This document shows positions 12,948 to 37,348 of a stretch of DNA of 37,348 nucleotides, piece after piece. Every line of letters starts with the position of its first letter. Within the stretch, counting starts at the first letter, position 1. The notes under the pieces are model-generated. The model was not told the origin of the DNA. It saw only the letters and a list, made by a program, of their open reading frames with translations, and ran no database searches. This DNA is from Bacillota bacterium. Lineage in GTDB: Bacteria; Bacillota; Sulfobacillia; Sulfobacillales; Sulfobacillaceae. A program made the translations under genes and the position numbers. The stretch covers positions 1-37,348 of the forward strand of contig JAJZZH010000004.1 in the NCBI GenBank assembly GCA_021797675.1, written 5' to 3'.

Positions 12948-13828
12948 TAAGTGATGGGCAACATCTCCGTTCTTCCGTAAGGTATTAGGCAAAATTTGGC
13001 GAAGGGCGATGGTTCGTGATGGAATCTCCCCGACTTCGTGAGTGCCTCCAAGAATACCTCACCGCCTCGATGGTGATGGAGGCGACGCACCAACCCGAAT
13101 GGATCCAGGCCACGCTGGATGTCGTGGGGCAGTTCTGGTATGGGCACGTGATCCCCACCACATGGCGCTCACGGGAGATCCGGCGGATTGGCGATGAGGC
13201 GATGTGTTGGCAGTGGGCCTCCGCCAGCGAACAGGCGGTCTGTCTCGAGTGTCACGCGGTCAGTCATCACCGGACCAAGACCTCCTGGACGCGCCGCCTG
13301 CAGGATCTGCCGTGCGCCGGCATGACCGTGTATCATGTGATTAAAACGAATCGGTATGTGTGCGAGAATCCTGCGTGCCCGGTCGACACCTTGACCGAAC
13401 AATTTGAGGCGATGGCGGGCAAGGATGCCCGCCTTACGCATCGCCTGAAGGAGGTTATCGTGGAGCAAGCCTTGAATTCGAACGCGAACGCCTTGACGGC
13501 ATCGCTCCGGCCGCTAGGCATTCGCGTCAGCCGCGAAACGATCTTGCGCTTGCTGAAGGCTCGGGGCGCGACGGTCGTCGCGCCAGACCTCGCCCGGGAC
13601 GATGTGCGGGTGTGATCGTCGATGATATCAATCTGCACAAGGGAGAGCCGTCGACCGCGTGTTCGGTCTTTATCGACGGGGAGACGCATCGGGTGTTGGT
13701 GATTGCTCAGGGGGCCTCCGAAGCGATTGCCGAGAAAGTGATGCGCGAATTTCCCACCGTTGAGATGGTGAGCCGCGATCGCGGCAGCAGCCTTGGGGAA
13801 ACCGCAGGTGGCGGATAGTTTTCATCTG

Positions 13829-13965
13829 GTTCAGAATTCATACATTGATCGGTTAAGTCAGGTGGTGGGGTTCGGGCTCTGAAATCACGAGGACTATTGC
13901 CGATGAGTGTTTTCCTCCCTCCCCTGATGCCATAGCTGCCTTATCTGGGGATGTAGTTCAGAATT
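13829..13965. mobile_element. 117-bp insertion with 10-bp target duplication in the ISL3 gene
   Basis: GTTCAGAATT is present at 13829-13838 and 13956-13965. The 117 bp between them are not ISL3 coding sequence. Deleting the insert plus one repeat yields FHLVQNLHQAV, as ISL3 proteins read. The insert has only about 5 bp of terminal inverted similarity (TACAT near each end), encodes nothing, and may be a MITE or an internally deleted IS. Confidence 0.55.
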
Positions 13966-14170
13966 TGCACCAGGCCGTGAAAGAGTCTCTGGCGCAGTCC
14001 CTCGGTTCGGATGTCTTCGTGCGGGAAGGGGCTTGGTTGGGTCCCCAAGATGAACGGGGCCGAGAAAGCCAGGCTCGAGCCGGTCCCCGCCGGAGAGACC
14101 AGCGATCGGGCGGATCCCCTGTGCGTGATCACATCGGGTAGGAGGGGGCGTCTCGCCCCCGTCCCCCCAC

Positions 14171-14202
14171 ACCGCCGTACGTACCGTCCGGTATACGGCG
14201 GT
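14171..14202 (-). ncRNA. Group II intron domain V
   Basis: A 32-nt hairpin on the minus strand: lower stem ACCGCCGTA/TACGGCGGT, upper stem TACC/GGTA, a GGAC loop, and a 2-nt CG bulge on the 3' side. This matches the geometry of domain V, the catalytic core of group II introns. The remaining ribozyme may be structurally intact even though the protein is not. Confidence 0.65.
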
Positions 14203-14215
14203 TGACTACTTGTGA

Positions 14216-15054
14216 GACAGCCCGTGATGAGTTTGATACGCGTCCCAGAGGGAGAAGAGGCCTTGGCGGTGCCAATAAGCGAGCGGTAGGGCGGCGTTAA
14301 GTGGGCCATGCGCGATGCGCCAGACCCCATTGCGACTAAACGCCGTTTCGCGGGCGCGGGATTCGGGTGCACGACGCCCTCCGCCATGATGCCCTCTTGA
14401 AGATACGAGCGGATGAGGCGCAGCACCGCTTTGTCGGCAATGTGCCGGGCGACCCGGGCCATGAGGATGTCGTGGTTGACGCGGTCAAAGAACTTTTCGA
14501 GGTCGAGGTCGACCACCCACGTATATCCCTCATTGAGGTACTGCTGCGCTTGCCGAATGGCATCGTGCGCCGACCGCCCCGGGCGAAACCCGAAACTCGC
14601 CTCGGAAAACATGGGGTCGAACAGCGGTGTCAGCACCTGCTGGACCGCCTGTTGGATAAAGCGGTCCAGCGTCGTCGGGATCCCCAACATTCGGGTTCCT
14701 TTCCCGTCCGGCTTGGGAATATCTACGCGCCGAACGGCCGTCGGGACATACGTCCCCTGCCAGCGCTGGTGAGCCACGTCGGGCCGGTGGGCCGCGAGGA
14801 CTGTGGTTAATTGGTCGACCGTCACGCCGTCCACTCCTGGAGCCCCGGCATTCGCCACTACCTGCGTGAGCGCGGCGCGGAGGTTCGCGGGGTCCAAGAT
14901 GGCGTCCATGACGTCATGGGGTGCGGAGGGCGGTTCGGGGGGATGCCGACAAACCACTCAGCGCCCGTGTACCCTCTCCCGGCTTCACCGAGTCGGGATG
15001 ACCGTGGCTCTCGGACGAGACATTCAGCTGTGACGGTGGTTGCTGCGAATCCAT
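14216..15054 (-). pseudogene. Group II intron reverse transcriptase, internally deleted and frameshifted
   Basis: The original start is probably ATG at 15054, 8 nt after AAGGAGG; a shift at a C6 run near 14940 moves the frame. RT domains 0-4 are clear: AGAPGVDGVTVDQL, VDIPKPDGKGTRMLGIPTTL, FGFRPGRSAHDAI and VVDLDLEKFFDRVNHDI. After about 14345 the sequence jumps to the usual C-terminal end, RNGVWRIAHGPLN and YWHRQGLFSLWDAY, stopping at 14216. The catalytic YADD block, thumb and most of the maturase domain are deleted, so no active RT can be made. Confidence 0.75.
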
Positions 15055-15719
15055 CAGAAATTCCTCCTTGACAAGTAATCTCTCTTAAACCCTTCGGCGC
15101 GTCATCGACGCGCCTACTATGGCGAGTGCTGACTGCTCCCTCATCAGCGTCTCCTTACGGAGACGGTTGCCCGAGTGGCTCACGGAAGCGGGGTGTTGGC
15201 CGTTCTAGCACCACGCCCTGTTGTACCGTTGGACTCCGCGCGAGGGTCGAGCGGTTTGAGAGCTCTCCCCGGGTAAGGCTGTGTACTTGTCCCTGCATGT
15301 CCCTGCCGCGTGCTTGTCCGTATTGGGCTTCGTGCTGACCCGCGCACTCGCCCCACGCGACCGGCCTCGTATGCGATTTCTGTTCGTCAGGGCGCAGGTA
15401 TGCCGCCGACTTCCTTCAGATTCCGCCTCACGGCGGACGCCCTTGTCTTAGGCTCATGGTTGGTACGGCCAACCTCCATTCGGGCCTTTCACCCTAAAGC
15501 ACACGGTCATGCGGGGCACACGGGCCCCGCCACCTCGACGGTGGCGGATCGGGAACGACGTATCCAACTCGCGGGCCTGACGGCCCGGCAAGCCACGAAG
15601 TATCGCCGCACCCTGGGTCGGGCTGAAAATGACCGACAGCGGGTTGCGGACGACCGAGATCGCGGGGCGACGGGCGTGCACCAGGGCCGAGGTCCGCCGA
15701 TATCGGAAACAGGCCCCCA

Positions 15720-16384
15720 AAACCGTTCACTACCCTGGTGATCTTGCTGGGCGATGGGGCAGACTGGATCTGGCGCGATGCCGACGAGCATCTGGGGGGG
15801 CGGGGCGCCAAATCGTCAAAATCCTGGACATGTTTCATGGCCGCGAACACCTCTGGGGCTATGGCCGGAGCCATTTTGACACCGAGATCGCGGCCATATA
15901 CACCTGGGCGGAACCGTTAAATAGCCGCTTCGAAACGGACGGGCCCGGACCGATTCTCGCCACCATGGCCGCCCTGGAAGCGCAACGTCCCGGAGCGGAC
16001 CCGGAAAAGGCCGCGGAACATCATCGCTATTTTACGAATCAAGCGGATCGGATGGATTATCCGCGGTATCGAGCGTTGGAGTTGCCCATCGGATTGGGGA
16101 TCGTCGAAGGGGCGTGTAAGATTTTGGTCAAACAGCGATTGGATGCCGGCGGGATGTGGTGGAACCCGGGCGGTATCCAAAGCATCGGCACGTTGCGAGC
16201 GCTCTACCGATCGGGTCGGGAGCGCTGGCGCGCATTGTGGGCAGGGTGCCCTTATGCAGCGGAACGCGGTCGTGCTCCCGGGGTGCCGGACGGTCCCGTG
16301 CGCGGGGACCGCAGAGGTCGCCTAGCGGGCGCGTCGAGTCGTCGCGCGGGAGTCTTCGCACACTGCCTGGATAATGGCAAATAA
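15720..16384 (+). pseudogene. ISKra4-family transposase, C-terminal fragment
   Basis: Frame one carries TTLVILLGDGADWIWRDADE (15726-15800). A G-rich slip near 15797-15810 moves the match to QIVKILDMFHGREHLWGY, YFTNQADRMDYPRYRA, LPIGLGIVEGACKILVKQRL and GGMWWNPGGIQS, ending at 16384. The GDGAxWIW, FHxREHLW and PIGSGxVEgacK blocks identify ISKra4 transposases. The conserved Ser of PIGSG is Leu here. The piece starts exactly where ISL3 similarity ends (15711-15730) and complements the N-terminal fragment at 12194-12859, though about 100 central residues are missing. Confidence 0.7.
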
Positions 16385-25793: not shown

Positions 25794-26819
25794 CTACCGG
25801 CGCTTGTGCTGTTTTTTCTGGCGGGATGGGTTGGACAAGCTCCGCAATTGGGCGGGTGAAAGATACTTTTCAGCCAGAGGGTAGAACGTGGTGGGATCGT
25901 CCGACCGGCCGGAGATCGCCACGACCCAATGTGAGTCAGAATCCCCTCCCGCGTCGGTTGTGGAATTTCTGGCTTCGGCCCATTCTTCCGGCGATGGCAG
26001 CATGGCAATGGCCTTGCCCGATTTTACATGGACGCGCGCCAGTTCTATCAAGGCGTGGGCCAAAAGATCGCGCAGGTCGTTAGCGTTCAACCTTTCATAA
26101 CGCGCCGCCTTGGCCAAGGCTTGCCGCAAATATCGCGCACCGGCCTCTTCCGCCCCTGACTGGATCAGAATCATTCCTAGAGTGAAGTCGGATTCCATGA
26201 GATTCGCATCGAGACTGAGGGATTTTTCCAAGGCAGCCATCGCCAGGTCGGCGCGGCGCGATTTAAAATAGAGATTGCCCAGCCGGTTCCACAAATACGC
26301 GGTCTCGCCCTGACTAGCCATCAGGCCAAAAAAATGCTCTTCGGCGTCGGTGGCGAACGAGTACATGTAGCCGTCAAACAGATCCGCGGTGGTTATGGAC
26401 ACCCACGACGGACGGCCTCTGCCGGATCTCACGGCTAACATTTCGTGGATGAGGCGGGTATAAAAACTGTCCGGAAATTCCCAAGAATCCGCGCCATTGC
26501 AGTATCGGCAGCGGAAATATCCCATGCACTGGAACGAGTCCTTGAGAATCAGGTCGGACCGTGTTTTTTTGACCCGTACTGAATATCGCCGACTTACGAG
26601 GACCATGCCGATGTCGTATTGTGCCGGTCGGTGGCAAATGCGGCAGGTCACTGTCTCCGTGTGACCCGGAACAAGATAAACAATACGTTTGTGAGCTTCG
26701 CTGGCATAAGCCGCCCACTTTCCTGGAAGGGCCTCCACGGTTACCGGTTGCCTTACTTCATCGAGAGGGATGCCGGTCAGGAGACTGATCAATTTCGGAT
26801 TGATGCCCGCCGTATTCAT
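25794..26819 (-). CDS. TPR-repeat protein with CxxC zinc-ribbon-like motifs
   Basis: A 341-residue cytoplasmic protein of unknown function. Residues about 55-110 hold two metal-binding pairs, CRICH and CRYC, about 45 residues apart, suggesting a zinc ribbon. Residues about 165-265 form TPR-like helical pairs (ETAYLWNRLGNLYFKSRRAD, LAMAALEKSLSLDANLMES, EAGARYLRQALAKAARYERL), usually a protein-binding scaffold. The C-terminus is basic (RQKKQHKRR). ATG 26819 is the natural start, behind a good minus-strand promoter with a leader of about 135 nt. It has no obvious operon partner. The zinc-ribbon plus TPR combination is seen in uncharacterised Firmicutes proteins; I infer no specific function. Confidence 0.7.
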   Translation of the reverse strand: MNTAGINPKLISLLTGIPLDEVRQPVTVEALPGKWAAYASEAHKRIVYLVPGHTETVTCRICHRPAQYDIGMVLVSRRYSVRVKKTRSDLILKDSFQCMGYFRCRYCNGADSWEFPDSFYTRLIHEMLAVRSGRGRPSWVSITTADLFDGYMYSFATDAEEHFFGLMASQGETAYLWNRLGNLYFKSRRADLAMAALEKSLSLDANLMESDFTLGMILIQSGAEEAGARYLRQALAKAARYERLNANDLRDLLAHALIELARVHVKSGKAIAMLPSPEEWAEARNSTTDAGGDSDSHWVVAISGRSDDPTTFYPLAEKYLSPAQLRSLSNPSRQKKQHKRR

Positions 26820-29522: not shown

Positions 29523-30623
29523 GTGGGGACTAGCAGGGCGCGCCGGGCGCGCCCGGAAGACGTGCGGGCGCTGGGGGAATTGTCCGACCGGGTCTTCCGG
29601 CCGACGCTGCCACCAGGGGCGGGGATGCCCGTGGAATTTCCCCGCCTGTTTCACGCAGACAACGCTGGCAATCTCTATTTGGTGGAGGATTCGGCAGGAA
29701 ATCCGGTGAGCATGGTGGGAACCTATCCCAGCGAACTGGTGAGCAACGGAATCCGCCTCACGGCGGTTTCTATCGGCTCGGTGGCCACCTTGCCCGATCA
29801 CCGTGGTCGTGGTTACGCTACCGAGATGCTGGAAATGATCATCGAAGATCATTCCCCGCATCATTCCATTATGCTGGTCTCTGGGGGCCGCGGATTGTAC
29901 GCACGCCTGGGCTGTGTGGAATTCGGAACGCTGCTACGAGCCTGGTGGGAGCCGGCTGACTGGTCAGACACCCGCGTGACCTGCCGGGAAAGCGCTTACC
30001 CCCGGGGGGATGCGTCGATGCTCCACCGACTCTACCAAACGGAAGCCTATCGGGTGTTGCGAACGCCTATCGAAATGGAAAGCTATGTGAATGCGACCAC
30101 AGCACCGCGTTTTCGAGCTCGCCCCGCGCCGGGACGCGTGTTGATTGCTGAACGGGAGGACACGGCAGTGGCCTACGCGGTGGCCGCTCCCGGCCGGGAA
30201 GGCGCAGCCATCAACTTCTTGGAGTGGGCGGGAGACCGGGCCGGATTGCTGAGCTTGGCCCAGTATGCCTTGCGCCAGATGCAGGGAGACCGCGTGGAGT
30301 GGCGCTTTCAGCCCGGCGACCGGACGCTCGGCGGTCTGTTGGCGGCCCATCGCATTCCCCATGAACCCTGTCCCAATCAAGGCACGATTGCGCTACTCAA
30401 CCCAGAGCGACTATTGAACGAAGTGAATCCATGGATTGAGGAGCAAACCGGCCAACGTTTAACATGGCAGCAAGGATACCAGGTGGCATGGTCGGGATCT
30501 CCCCCCGCCGAGGTGCCGTCGCTGCCCACCGAACCCAGTCGCGCTGCCCTGACCCGATGGTTCTTTTCGGCCGACGGAGTGAACGTGCCCTTGGTAGATA
30601 CCGGCGGACTAAGCTACATTTAG
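29523..30623 (+). CDS. GNAT acetyltransferase, Eis-like multidomain type
   Basis: About 367 residues. GTG 29523 is chosen because AAGGAG (29509-29514) lies 8 nt upstream and the protein then starts just before the first GNAT strand (RRARPEDVRALGELSDRVFR); the frame open to 29340 is not protein-like. The N-terminal GNAT domain (about 5-140) has the acetyl-CoA loop VATLPDHRGRGYATEML (R/Q-x-x-G-x-G/A). A second GNAT-like part (about 150-290) and a C-terminal tail make it similar in layout to Eis-type acetyltransferases, which modify amines on aminoglycosides or proteins. The substrate here is unknown. It is transcribed alone and ends at the terminator at 30701. Confidence 0.8.
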   Translation: MGTSRARRARPEDVRALGELSDRVFRPTLPPGAGMPVEFPRLFHADNAGNLYLVEDSAGNPVSMVGTYPSELVSNGIRLTAVSIGSVATLPDHRGRGYATEMLEMIIEDHSPHHSIMLVSGGRGLYARLGCVEFGTLLRAWWEPADWSDTRVTCRESAYPRGDASMLHRLYQTEAYRVLRTPIEMESYVNATTAPRFRARPAPGRVLIAEREDTAVAYAVAAPGREGAAINFLEWAGDRAGLLSLAQYALRQMQGDRVEWRFQPGDRTLGGLLAAHRIPHEPCPNQGTIALLNPERLLNEVNPWIEEQTGQRLTWQQGYQVAWSGSPPAEVPSLPTEPSRAALTRWFFSADGVNVPLVDTGGLSYI

Positions 30624-35004: not shown

Positions 35005-35553
35005 TCAGACTGGTGACGGCTTCCCGCGGTTAAAGTCGCGTATTGTCGATTCATGGCGGTGGCATGTTCTCCACCCGGCTCCGTCCGCGATCCCAAAAGG
35101 GATGTGCACCATTTGATTCGTGTCATCTATCGGATGGCTGGCAAGCCATCCTGCCACGTCTCGCGCGGGGATGAGGCTGCTCAGCTCATACAAAATAGCG
35201 AGGAGCCTGGATTGCCTTGGGTATTTTCCAGGTACGCGCGGGTGGGCCTCCGTCGGGTCCAAGGCGAAGGCGATCTCTGCGGCCGTCTCTTGCACGGCAT
35301 TCCAAATCGTCATGGTATCGAGCGTCCAACCGAAGAGGCTCACGGTCTTGGCTGCCATCGGTAGGGCGTCAGGGAGCCGAGCACCCCAACCGGGAGAACA
35401 CCGCCATCGTAATGCGCTCCTGGCGCTCCCATCGCGGGCGATGGAAAACTTGTGTCCGCACGGTTGGCACGGCACCCGCAGCTGGCGTAAGACGACCTAT
35501 TGGAAGATGGTCAGCATCTTGGTCGGTTTGCCGTGCCGGGTCTGCCCAAACGT
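35005..35553 (-). pseudogene. Zinc-ribbon transposase relic, family unassigned
   Basis: On the minus strand one frame gives FGQTRHGKPTKMLTIFQ, an amber stop, then VVLRQLRVPCQPCGHKFSIA and the helical segment AAKTVSLFGWTLDTMTIWNA with VQETAAEIAFALDP. Zinc ribbon followed by an HTH-like segment is the usual start of many IS transposases. The nonsense codon, a further frame conflict around ERQERITMAVFSRLG in another frame, and absence of any DDE core show decay. No open end toward 35005 matches a catalytic domain. Confidence 0.4.
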
Positions 35554-35717
35554 TGATCGTTGCCACCGTGGTCGCAGGCAAACGGCTTGTGCGGCCATCC
35601 CATGATCCTTTCCGCATGACCTCGTCAGCGCCTTTGGGAGAACATCGGTGAAATAGGAGGGCAAGGGCCGCGAGCAATGTCATCCATCGGCAAGCGTTGA
35701 GGGAAGGATATTCGAAA

Positions 35718-35746
35718 TTGACAATCGTTCTCCACCGTGATATTCG
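35718..35746 (+). promoter_or_regulatory. Candidate promoter of the AIM24-family gene
   Basis: Perfect TTGACA (35718-35723) with weak -10 options GATATT (35739-35744, 15-bp gap) or TATTCG (35741-35746, 17-bp gap). The leader would be about 210 nt and ends in the palindrome at 35925. Confidence 0.35.
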
Positions 35747-35924
35747 TAAAGTGTGGGATCTTCCCATGCCGTCCTTTCTTTGTGGTGGGGATTGGTGAAT
35801 ATTCACCATTCGGATCGCAATCTACCCTTACGACAAAGAGGGGCGGTTTTCTTGTGCAAGATGCAATATCTACGCGACCCAGTTGGCTTGATTGGCATAG
35901 GCCGTTCCTTCCGAAAGTCGCGCC

Positions 35925-35960: not shown

Positions 35961-36644
35961 TTGCAAGCTAACACCAGCGGATCCCCCATGTCGGTACTGG
36001 AAGTTTTGTTGGAATCTCCCGAGGACCGTCTGCTTGTTGAAGCGGGTAAGGCCGCGTGGATGGATCACACCGTGCAGATGCGCACGACTGCCATGGAACA
36101 TGGAGGACTGCTCGGCGCACTCAAACGGGCGGCGGGCGGCGGGCCGTGGTTTTGGTCCGAGTTGTCGGGTGCCGGACGCGTGGGTATTGCTGCCACACTG
36201 CCGGGTTCCATCGAATCCATCGAGCTGCAGGGAACGCAGGGTGTCCTCGCTCACCGCTCTGCGTTTTTAGCCGGCAGCGGCAACGTCCAAGTCGGCGTCG
36301 GCTTCCAAAAACGGTTGGGCGCCGGAATATTCGGCGGTGAGGGCTTTATCTTGCAACATCTGAGCGGCGACGGCACCGTTTGGATCCAACTCGGCGGCTC
36401 ATTTGTCACCTATAATCTGGAGGCGGGTGAAACTCTCCTGATCCATCCCCAACACGTTGGGATGTTTGATGCGCACATGTCCTTCGACATTACGATGGTG
36501 CGCGGCATCCGCAATCGCTTGTTTGGCGGCGAAGGTCTGTTTTTCTGTCGCCTTCAAGGCCCTGGGCGCGTCTATTGTCAGTCCATGGCCGTTGCCCAAC
36601 TGGCCCAGGACTTGGAGCCGTATCTCCCATCCCGGCCTTCGTAA
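35961..36644 (+). CDS. AIM24 family protein
   Basis: A 227-residue cytoplasmic protein of the AIM24 / TIGR00266 family, a beta-rich trimeric fold of unclear biochemical role in bacteria. Typical features are the repeated Gly-rich turns LSGAGRVGIAATLPGSIESI, FGGEGFILQHLSGDGTVWIQ and FGGEGLFFCRLQGPGRVYCQ. The length matches the family. TTG 35961 is the start because AAAGGAGG (35945-35952) lies 8 nt upstream. No operon partner is seen; downstream lies the omega-RNA/HNH region on the same strand, whose left edge would be in its 3' flank. Confidence 0.85.
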   Translation: MQANTSGSPMSVLEVLLESPEDRLLVEAGKAAWMDHTVQMRTTAMEHGGLLGALKRAAGGGPWFWSELSGAGRVGIAATLPGSIESIELQGTQGVLAHRSAFLAGSGNVQVGVGFQKRLGAGIFGGEGFILQHLSGDGTVWIQLGGSFVTYNLEAGETLLIHPQHVGMFDAHMSFDITMVRGIRNRLFGGEGLFFCRLQGPGRVYCQSMAVAQLAQDLEPYLPSRPS

Positions 36645-36689
36645 ACTATCGTTGGCTACAAGAGCACCGAACCTTCTCATTTGCAAGCG

Positions 36690-36845
36690 TAGGCTGTTGC
36701 ACCGCGGGGAACCCGCAGACGAAGATCAGTACGGAATCGCGCAATGGGCTTCCGAGCCGGAAACCCAGCTTCGGCGGCCCGCACTCCATTACCGGAATCG
36801 GGGGTAAAGTCCCCGCGTGCAGAGGGGCACTTTTTCCTCGAAAAT
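36690..36845 (+). ncRNA. Candidate omega-RNA (HEARO-like) upstream of the IscB HNH segment
   Basis: A non-coding, highly foldable stretch. It contains the hairpin GCGGG/CCCGC (36704-36716), the stem GGG-TCCG/CGGA-CCC (36746-36766) and the stem CGGGG/CCCCG (36799-36815), followed by a T-rich ending near 36830. Known omega-RNAs lie directly 5' of iscB, with the guide at their 5' end taken from the flanking DNA. By that rule the guide would be the bases just before about 36690, in the 3' flank of the AIM24 gene. The assignment rests on position and structure, not on an alignment. Confidence 0.4.
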
Positions 36846-37018
36846 GCCCAAATGGGCAACAAAGAAATGCATATAGGATCGGAAACAGGCGCCCGACATC
36901 GTTCAATTCGTGGAGCGGAACATTGACGAATCTAATCAACGCAGGCAGCTCGGACAGCTGGAATGGCCCCGAAAGATGCTTGCGCCCCAGGCGCGGCCGT
37001 CCCCCGAATCCATTTTGA

Positions 37019-37348
37019 ACTCCTGCCGGGTACCAGCAAGGCACACTCCTGGGCTATGAGGTGCGGGAGTACTTGCTAGAAAAGTGGGGGCGAGCGTGTG
37101 GGTACTGCGGTCAGACTGATGTCCCCCTGCAAGTCGAACACATCGTGCCCAAGGTGCGGGAGGGAAGCAACCGGGTCAGCAATCTCACCATGGCCTGCGA
37201 ACCATGCAACCTCCGAAAGAACCAGCAAACGGCGGCAGAGTTCGGCTATCCGGACATCCAAGCGCAAGCCCGAAAGCCCCTGAAGGATGCCGCCATGATG
37301 AATGCCACCCGGTGGCGGTTGTATGTGCAGTTGCAGGCCACCGGACTA
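37019..37348 (+). pseudogene. iscB: IscB-like nuclease, HNH part (5' end missing, runs off the window)
   Basis: The frame reads [20 protein letters not shown], then [39 protein letters not shown] and [16 protein letters not shown] up to the window end. This is the HNH insert and adjoining RuvC-II side of IscB (family knowledge: [19 protein letters not shown], EHIxPKxxgGSNRxSNLxxAC, KDAAxxNxTRW). A TGA at 37016-37018 precedes it. The upstream frame lacks the PLMP domain, RuvC-I and bridge helix, which need about 200 codons, while only about 60 separate it from the putative omega-RNA. It is either a deleted IscB or a different short HNH protein; the 3' part is outside the window. Confidence 0.6.

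What the first reader, a model, noticed from the sequence alone, without database searches (positions are those of the whole stretch)
36650..37348. IscB HNH module next to a possible omega-RNA, with the N-terminal half of IscB missing
A clear IscB-type HNH segment begins right after a stop codon, and only about 170 bp separate it from a structured, omega-RNA-like stretch. A normal iscB needs about 600 bp for PLMP, RuvC-I and bridge helix in between. This is either a decayed transposon or a short HNH protein served by an omega-RNA, reminiscent of the described IshB type (PLMP plus HNH, no RuvC), although no PLMP motif is visible.
Basis: partly seen in the sequence, partly recalled or inferred. 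Interest (0 to 1): 0.75.

Follow-up and report, generated by a model that had tools for sequence, protein, structure and literature searches.

The report
Broken IscB fragment among dead transposons
The sequence holds a broken-off piece of a known RNA-guided DNA-cutting gene (IscB) stuck onto scraps of other jumping genes at the end of an assembled contig; it does not look like a new short enzyme with its own guide RNA, so it is ordinary.

Summary
The HNH segment is real: window 37030-37348 encodes an IscB piece (NF040563, 138.7 bits, profile 173-282 of 314), 89% identical in DNA to a full-length iscB on contig C193 of the same genome. The proposed omega-RNA is not supported: no HEARO match up to E 10, although that model finds 23 copies elsewhere in the genome; nothing with a lineage model; ordinary folding energy. 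Instead, 36789-37348 reads as transposon scraps: an IS200/IS605 left end (36789-36822), a TnpB N-terminal scrap (minus, 36825-36887), the middle of an ISL3-type transposase (36878-37028), then iscB from 37030. PLMP, RuvC-I, bridge helix and the RuvC-II glutamate are missing, and no remnant of them was found upstream. Of 80 related loci from other genomes, 79 have the N-terminal half close upstream, 76 uninterrupted; the 80th is cut by its contig start. The contig ends at 37348, so the fragment's 3' end is unseen. Verdict: a decayed iscB fragment in a genome, probably Sulfobacillus-like, with much IscB debris.

The parts
35961..36644 (+). AIM24/TIGR00266-family gene, neighbour upstream; not part of the mobile debris
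   Evidence: Pfam AIM24 E 7.9e-60; TIGR00266 111 bits over its cut-off of 96.6; 80% identical DNA in the same-genus genome G001:C108
36645..36788 (.).
   Evidence: In 61 genomes only three matches of 21-23 bases at E about 0.05 fall wholly inside it; no plasmid match; no relevant Rfam match
36789..36822 (+). Remnant of the left end of an IS200/IS605-family element, starting at TTAC; holds the GGGGGTAAAGTCCCC hairpin
   Evidence: 30 of 34 bases identical in G018:C47 and in G014:C294, found by BLAST; with a 26-base pattern, seven copies in five relatives, whose flanks upstream of TTAC share only chance identity with the window (0.24-0.29); in G020 a Y1 transposase domain follows, NF033573 80.9 bits, cut-off 55
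36825..36887 (-). N-terminal scrap of a TnpB-family gene (CFRSYMHFFVAHLGIFEEKVP)
   Evidence: 88% DNA identity over 59 bp with G021:C114; 16 of 21 residues identical, inside a longer tblastn alignment with stops, E 1.7e-10. The G021 protein matches NF040570 at 62.6 bits (cut-off 100) and Pfam Cas12f1-like_TNB over its cut-off, and lies beside an IS607 transposase, NF033518 196 bits
36878..37028 (+). Middle piece of a long ISL3-type transposase gene, out of frame with the IscB segment; its boundary with the TnpB scrap is uncertain within 36878-36887
   Evidence: 72% DNA identity with G000:C95:13641-13791; 50 residues at 52%, E 6.8e-9; in G010:C8 such a frame follows an ISL3 N-terminal half, NF033550 E 1.7e-27, 96.5 bits, cut-off 180
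37030..37348 (+). 5'-truncated iscB fragment: HNH domain and following sequence, frame open to the contig end
   Evidence: NF040563 E 2.2e-40, profile 173-282/314; homology to the full-length C193 copy begins at 37030

Best explanation
It is a dead, 5'-truncated fragment of an ordinary iscB gene, joined end to end with scraps of other insertion sequences (IS200/IS605 left end, TnpB, ISL3-type transposase) downstream of an AIM24-family gene. Shown: the similarity of each scrap to its relatives and the sharp joint between 37028 and 37030. Inferred: the scraps came together through repeated insertion, deletion and non-homologous joining in a transposon-rich spot. Inferred: the fragment does not act as an RNA-guided nuclease, because segments that hold the omega-RNA and complete the RuvC site are absent and no omega-RNA was found next to it.
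For: IscB identity. Homology with C193 iscB starts at 37030 and ISL3-type homology ends at 37028. In C193 the bases across this point read GGG GTG GAG TAC CAG (G V E Y Q); in the window GCC GGG TAC CAG (A G Y Q), so the glutamate codon is replaced at the joint. In other genomes most iscB matches also begin at 37030 or 37031 (I count 26 rows), a few up to six bases earlier or some bases later. In C193 the HEARO RNA (26141-26406) ends 50 bp before the iscB match (26457), the expected layout; none is found here. Decayed iscB is common in this genome: matches at C202, C33, C26 and C88 contain stop codons, and of 36 profile matches two (C193, C57) span the profile without a stop.
Against: The HNH frame is open for over 100 codons and its Cys and His residues look preserved by eye; against C193 there are 15 synonymous and 12 non-synonymous codon differences of 106, which fits recent truncation as well as possible function. 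Several other iscB pieces (for example C59, C143, C192, C214, C239) are cut by contig ends, so they need not be broken. RF02033 is known to miss some omega-RNAs. The contig ends at 37348, so the C-terminus is unseen.
Confidence: 0.93

Rival explanations
1. A short functional HNH protein (IshB-like) guided by an adjacent omega-RNA.
For: The HNH frame is open and a GTG start exists at 37061; hairpins can be drawn in 36690-36845; absence of an RF02033 match does not exclude an unusual omega-RNA (65% coverage in PMC9755519, passage).
Against: No omega-RNA match with the Rfam or the lineage model; unremarkable folding energy; no PLMP found; much of the stretch is other transposon debris; no HNH-only form among 80 related loci.
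Confidence: 0.02
2. The joint between 37028 and 37030 is an assembly error: a repeat-containing contig end was attached wrongly, and the true neighbour is a full iscB.
For: The contig ends 318 bp after the joint, inside a multi-copy repeat; other contigs begin or end inside iscB or at the 3' end of a HEARO copy.
Against: Base 37029 belongs to neither alignment and the nearest relatives of the two sides (C95, C193) share no stretch at the joint, whereas assemblers join on long identical words (general knowledge). The piece is not identical to any of the six other iscB copies matched in this genome (75-97%). Other scrap boundaries lie within 250 bp upstream. No reads were available, so this is not excluded.
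Confidence: 0.04
3. A complete iscB lies upstream but is hidden by frameshifts or sequencing errors.
For: Copies with stops or frame changes exist elsewhere in this genome (C33, C26, C202, C88).
Against: tblastn at E<=100 finds no ordered N-terminal piece in 36600-37029, and 36878-37028 matches another element instead.
Confidence: 0.01

Closest known systems
IscB (ISC / HEARO ORF, NCBIfam NF040563)
   Same: HNH domain and neighbouring sequence, 88.7% protein identity over 106 residues to the full-length C193 protein
   Different: Lacks PLMP, RuvC-I, bridge helix and the RuvC-II glutamate; no adjacent omega-RNA found; 3' end not assembled
IshB (PLMP plus HNH, no RuvC; definition recalled from Altae-Tran et al. 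2021, which I did not read; the name occurs once in PMC12477157, passages seen)
   Same: HNH without a complete RuvC
   Different: No PLMP and no omega-RNA found; the truncation is a breakpoint in a family whose relatives are full-length
HEARO / omega-RNA (RF02033)
   Same: G+C-rich hairpins only
   Different: No match at E<=10
IS200/IS605 left end
   Same: TTAC followed by CGGAATCGGG and GTAAAG, as in copies in relatives
   Different: Degenerate hairpin and no transposase found after it

Membership tests
IscB | N-terminal PLMP domain | tested here: not met
   No N-terminal IscB homology above chance in 36600-37029
IscB | RuvC-I and bridge helix | tested here: not met
   Profile match starts at position 173 of 314; nothing upstream
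IscB | RuvC-II catalytic glutamate (E193 in OgeuIscB, PMC9640706, passages) | tested here: not met
   C193 reads GVEYQQG, the window AGYQQG. That this E corresponds to E193 is inferred from position, not aligned
IscB | HNH domain | tested here: met
   Pfam HNH E 2.9e-12; NF040563
IscB | RuvC-III catalytic residues | not testable with these tools
   The contig ends at profile position 282 of 314
IscB | omega-RNA (HEARO) directly 5' of the gene | tested here: not met
   positive control 23 copies in the same genome; RF02033 does not find every omega-RNA
IshB | PLMP plus HNH without RuvC (recalled definition) | tested here: not met
   HNH present, PLMP not found
IS200/IS605 left end (36789-36822) | Terminal sequence shared with elements elsewhere, with unrelated outer flanks | tested here: met
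   30 of 34 bases in two copies found by BLAST
IS200/IS605 left end (36789-36822) | Y1 transposase belonging to the element | tested here: inconclusive
   Present after one copy (G020) of six whose nearby ORFs were tested; a TnpB-family frame after another (G014); the other four ORFs gave no match

The most novel reading that the evidence does not exclude
The truncated but frame-open HNH piece is still made (for instance from the GTG at 37061) and works as a free-standing nicking or DNA-binding domain, or joins in trans with full-length IscB complexes or the many HEARO RNAs elsewhere in this genome.
Probability: 0.02. Interest if true: 0.5.

Novelty: already known. Interest (0 to 1): 0.1.

Why it matters
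It matters mainly as a caution: a G+C-rich insertion-sequence end beside a broken iscB can look like a minimal OMEGA system. The genome itself, with 23 HEARO matches and 36 iscB profile matches of which two span the whole profile without a stop, is a useful example of IscB elements in many states of decay, though contig ends hide some copies.

Tried and rejected
The Rfam search of the whole window at gathering score found only two group II intron matches. Permissive searches of the end found nothing or only a SNORD88 match at E 2.9, far below its gathering score. A lineage omega-RNA model from 19 sequences (104 positions, 13 base pairs) was tried on 20 sources. Of 15 held-out HEARO loci given to it, it found 9 at E<=1.6e-7, L008 at E 0.37, and missed L202, L208, L213, L216 and L209, so it does not cover every subtype; RF02033 matches all of those. 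L057 and L175 are copies near or in the training set and are not counted. Other HEARO loci at hand were not given to it. In the finding's stretch it gave nothing above chance. Its best hit anywhere in the window was 30493-30586 minus, 12.5 bits, E 0.11, taken as chance.

I looked for what follows the contig end through the ORF after the AIM24-family gene in G001 (ion-channel-like by eye). Its only match in this genome is 54% identical and lies on C35, which did not help.

Labels that are weak: Pfam gave no ISL3 label to the ISL3-type frames. NCBIfam did for the N-terminal half in G010 only, under its cut-off, and gave the C95 frame a weak IS21 match (E 4e-6) instead. The ISL3 label of 36878-37028 therefore rests on gene adjacency in G010:C8. 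The TnpB-family frames in G021 and G014 are under the NCBIfam cut-off (62.6 and 84.9 of 100 bits). The seven left-end copies were picked with a pattern of at most three mismatches, so their likeness to the window in the first 26 bases is by construction; beyond about 30 bases identity to the window falls to 0.20-0.40, while among the copies it stays 0.47-0.65.

A 24-base match in G019:C36 spans the TnpB/ISL3 boundary of the window (E 8e-4 for one genome among 61); I treat it as chance. Two minus-strand ORFs at 35005-35809 gave no NCBIfam match. Literature: three searches, listings of 1, 7 and 5 papers; passages of PMC12477157, PMC9755519 and PMC9640706 were seen. I did not look for this locus in print in any other way.

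Full report
What was checked. The finding claims an IscB HNH module starting right after a stop codon, an omega-RNA-like stretch about 170 bp upstream, and no N-terminal half. The window is the whole contig C180 of the assembly G000 and ends at 37348, so nothing beyond it can be read. The best-scoring named relatives of the IscB segment are mostly Bacillota and Sulfobacillus metagenome genomes; the name of G000 is not given, so 'Sulfobacillus-like' is an inference.

The HNH segment is real. The frame is open from the TGA at 37016-37018 to the contig end. NCBIfam NF040563 (IscB) matches with E 2.2e-40 over profile positions 173-282 of 314; at 138.7 bits it is under the whole-protein cut-off of 175, as a fragment would be. 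Pfam HNH matches with E 2.9e-12. The full-length iscB at G000:C193:26457-27389 (428.6 bits, positions 1-314, no stops) is 89% identical in DNA over 37030-37348.

The missing half is missing by breakage. Homology to C193 begins at 37030. In other genomes most iscB matches also begin at 37030 or 37031 (26 rows by my count), a few three to six bases earlier and some later. In C193 the sequence across this point reads G-V-E-Y-Q-Q-G; in the window A-G-Y-Q-Q-G, so the glutamate codon is replaced at the joint. A tblastn of the C193 protein against 36600-37348 at E<=100 returns one strong match (residues 175-280, E 2.5e-69); the next best is E 0.14 on the minus strand, and no N-terminal pieces lie in order upstream.

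What lies upstream. Window 36878-37028 is 72% identical to G000:C95:13641-13791; the protein match is 50 residues at 52%, E 6.8e-9. In G010:C8 such a frame follows an ISL3 N-terminal half (NF033550, E 1.7e-27, under its cut-off), so I call it ISL3-type by adjacency. Window 36825-36887 on the minus strand matches the start of a TnpB-family gene in G021 (88% over 59 bp; 16 of 21 residues within a tblastn alignment of E 1.7e-10) that sits beside an IS607 transposase. Window 36789-36822 matches G018:C47 and G014:C294 at 30 of 34 bases. A 26-base pattern from it finds seven copies in five of the 33 relatives searched, besides the window. Upstream of TTAC these copies share only chance identity with the window (0.24-0.29 in ten-base bins) and lie in unrelated sequence. 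In G020 a Y1 transposase domain of the IS200/IS605 family follows, its match beginning about 130 bases after TTAC (NF033573, 80.9 bits, cut-off 55); in G014 a TnpB-family frame follows (84.9 bits, cut-off 100). I read it as the left end of an IS200/IS605-family element; its hairpin is part of what looked like an omega-RNA. The 144 bp between the AIM24-family gene and this left end remain unassigned, so most of the proposed omega-RNA (36690-36788) has no positive identification.

The omega-RNA test. RF02033 finds 23 copies at E<=0.001 in this genome, three over the gathering score, none on C180. Permissive scans of 36400-37348 and 36646-36900 find no HEARO up to E 10. A covariance model from 19 omega-RNAs of this genome and relatives gives -0.7 bits, E 9.3, in the proposed stretch and at best 2.8 bits, E 0.87, anywhere in 36400-37348. 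The stretch folds no better than shuffled sequence (z -1.30; 22 of 200 shuffles at least as stable). In C193 the HEARO RNA ends 50 bp before iscB. PMC9755519 reports HEARO RNA hits in 65% of the 5' regions (passage), so a missing hit alone is not proof; the lineage model and the folding test point the same way.

Is there a short HNH-only lineage? Of 155 related stretches the best 80 loci were kept, several of them from the same genomes. In 79 of these 80 the N-terminal half lies within 700 bp upstream, in 76 without interruption; L108 and L147 show a frame change, L114 one stop, and L120 is cut by its contig start. So the fragment belongs to an ordinary full-length IscB group. Loci of this genome itself were not in that set.

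Context. Of the 23 HEARO copies in G000, nine have an iscB match shortly downstream (C193:26141, C182, C202, C102, C33, C214, C57, C88, C135), six lie so close to a contig end that this cannot be seen (C81, C193:33858, C228, C79, C7, C196:5591), and eight have none listed nearby (C206, C77, C196:2602, C113, C55, C49, C105, C62); this count is made by hand. Of 36 iscB profile matches, C193 and C57 span the profile without a stop; C202, C33, C26 and C88 contain stops; several others (C59, C143, C192, C214, C239) are cut by contig ends and may be whole.

How it works. Most likely it does not work as a guided nuclease. In OgeuIscB the PLMP motif contacts the omega-RNA and the RuvC site uses D61, E193, H340 and D343 (PMC9640706, passages); the PLMP part and the segments that should hold the first two are absent here. 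The HNH frame is open, so activity of an expressed fragment cannot be excluded from sequence, but nothing points to it.

Limits. No reads were available, so a misassembled joint cannot be formally excluded, though base 37029 belongs to neither alignment and the nearest relatives of the two sides share no stretch there. The 3' part of the fragment is unseen.

Noticed in passing
13016-16384: An ISL3-type transposase gene appears split: an N-terminal-like part at 13016-13615 (+), group II intron matches (RF02001 at 15278-15437 and RF01998 at 15089-15169, minus) with a reverse-transcriptase-like ORF at 13941-14957 (minus), then more transposase-like sequence at 15310-16384 (+). The protein labels are by eye.
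   Followed up: partly
G000 genome-wide (e.g. L008, L222 without iscB nearby; L003 with it): 23 HEARO omega-RNA matches in one 4.06 Mb genome, of which eight have no iscB match listed nearby and six lie at contig ends: solitary omega-RNAs or decayed elements.
   Followed up: partly
G001:C33, C25, C121; G014:C294; G018:C47; G020:C13; G039:C71: IS200/IS605-type left ends beginning at TTAC, one (G018) inside what looks like an aldehyde dehydrogenase gene and one (G014) directly after a TnpB-like frame (gene labels by eye).
   Followed up: partly
35005-35809 (minus strand): Two overlapping ORFs before the AIM24-family gene look by eye like a decayed transposase, but gave no NCBIfam match.
   Followed up: partly
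30493-30586 (minus strand): Weak match to the lineage omega-RNA model, 12.5 bits, E 0.11; probably chance.
   Followed up: no
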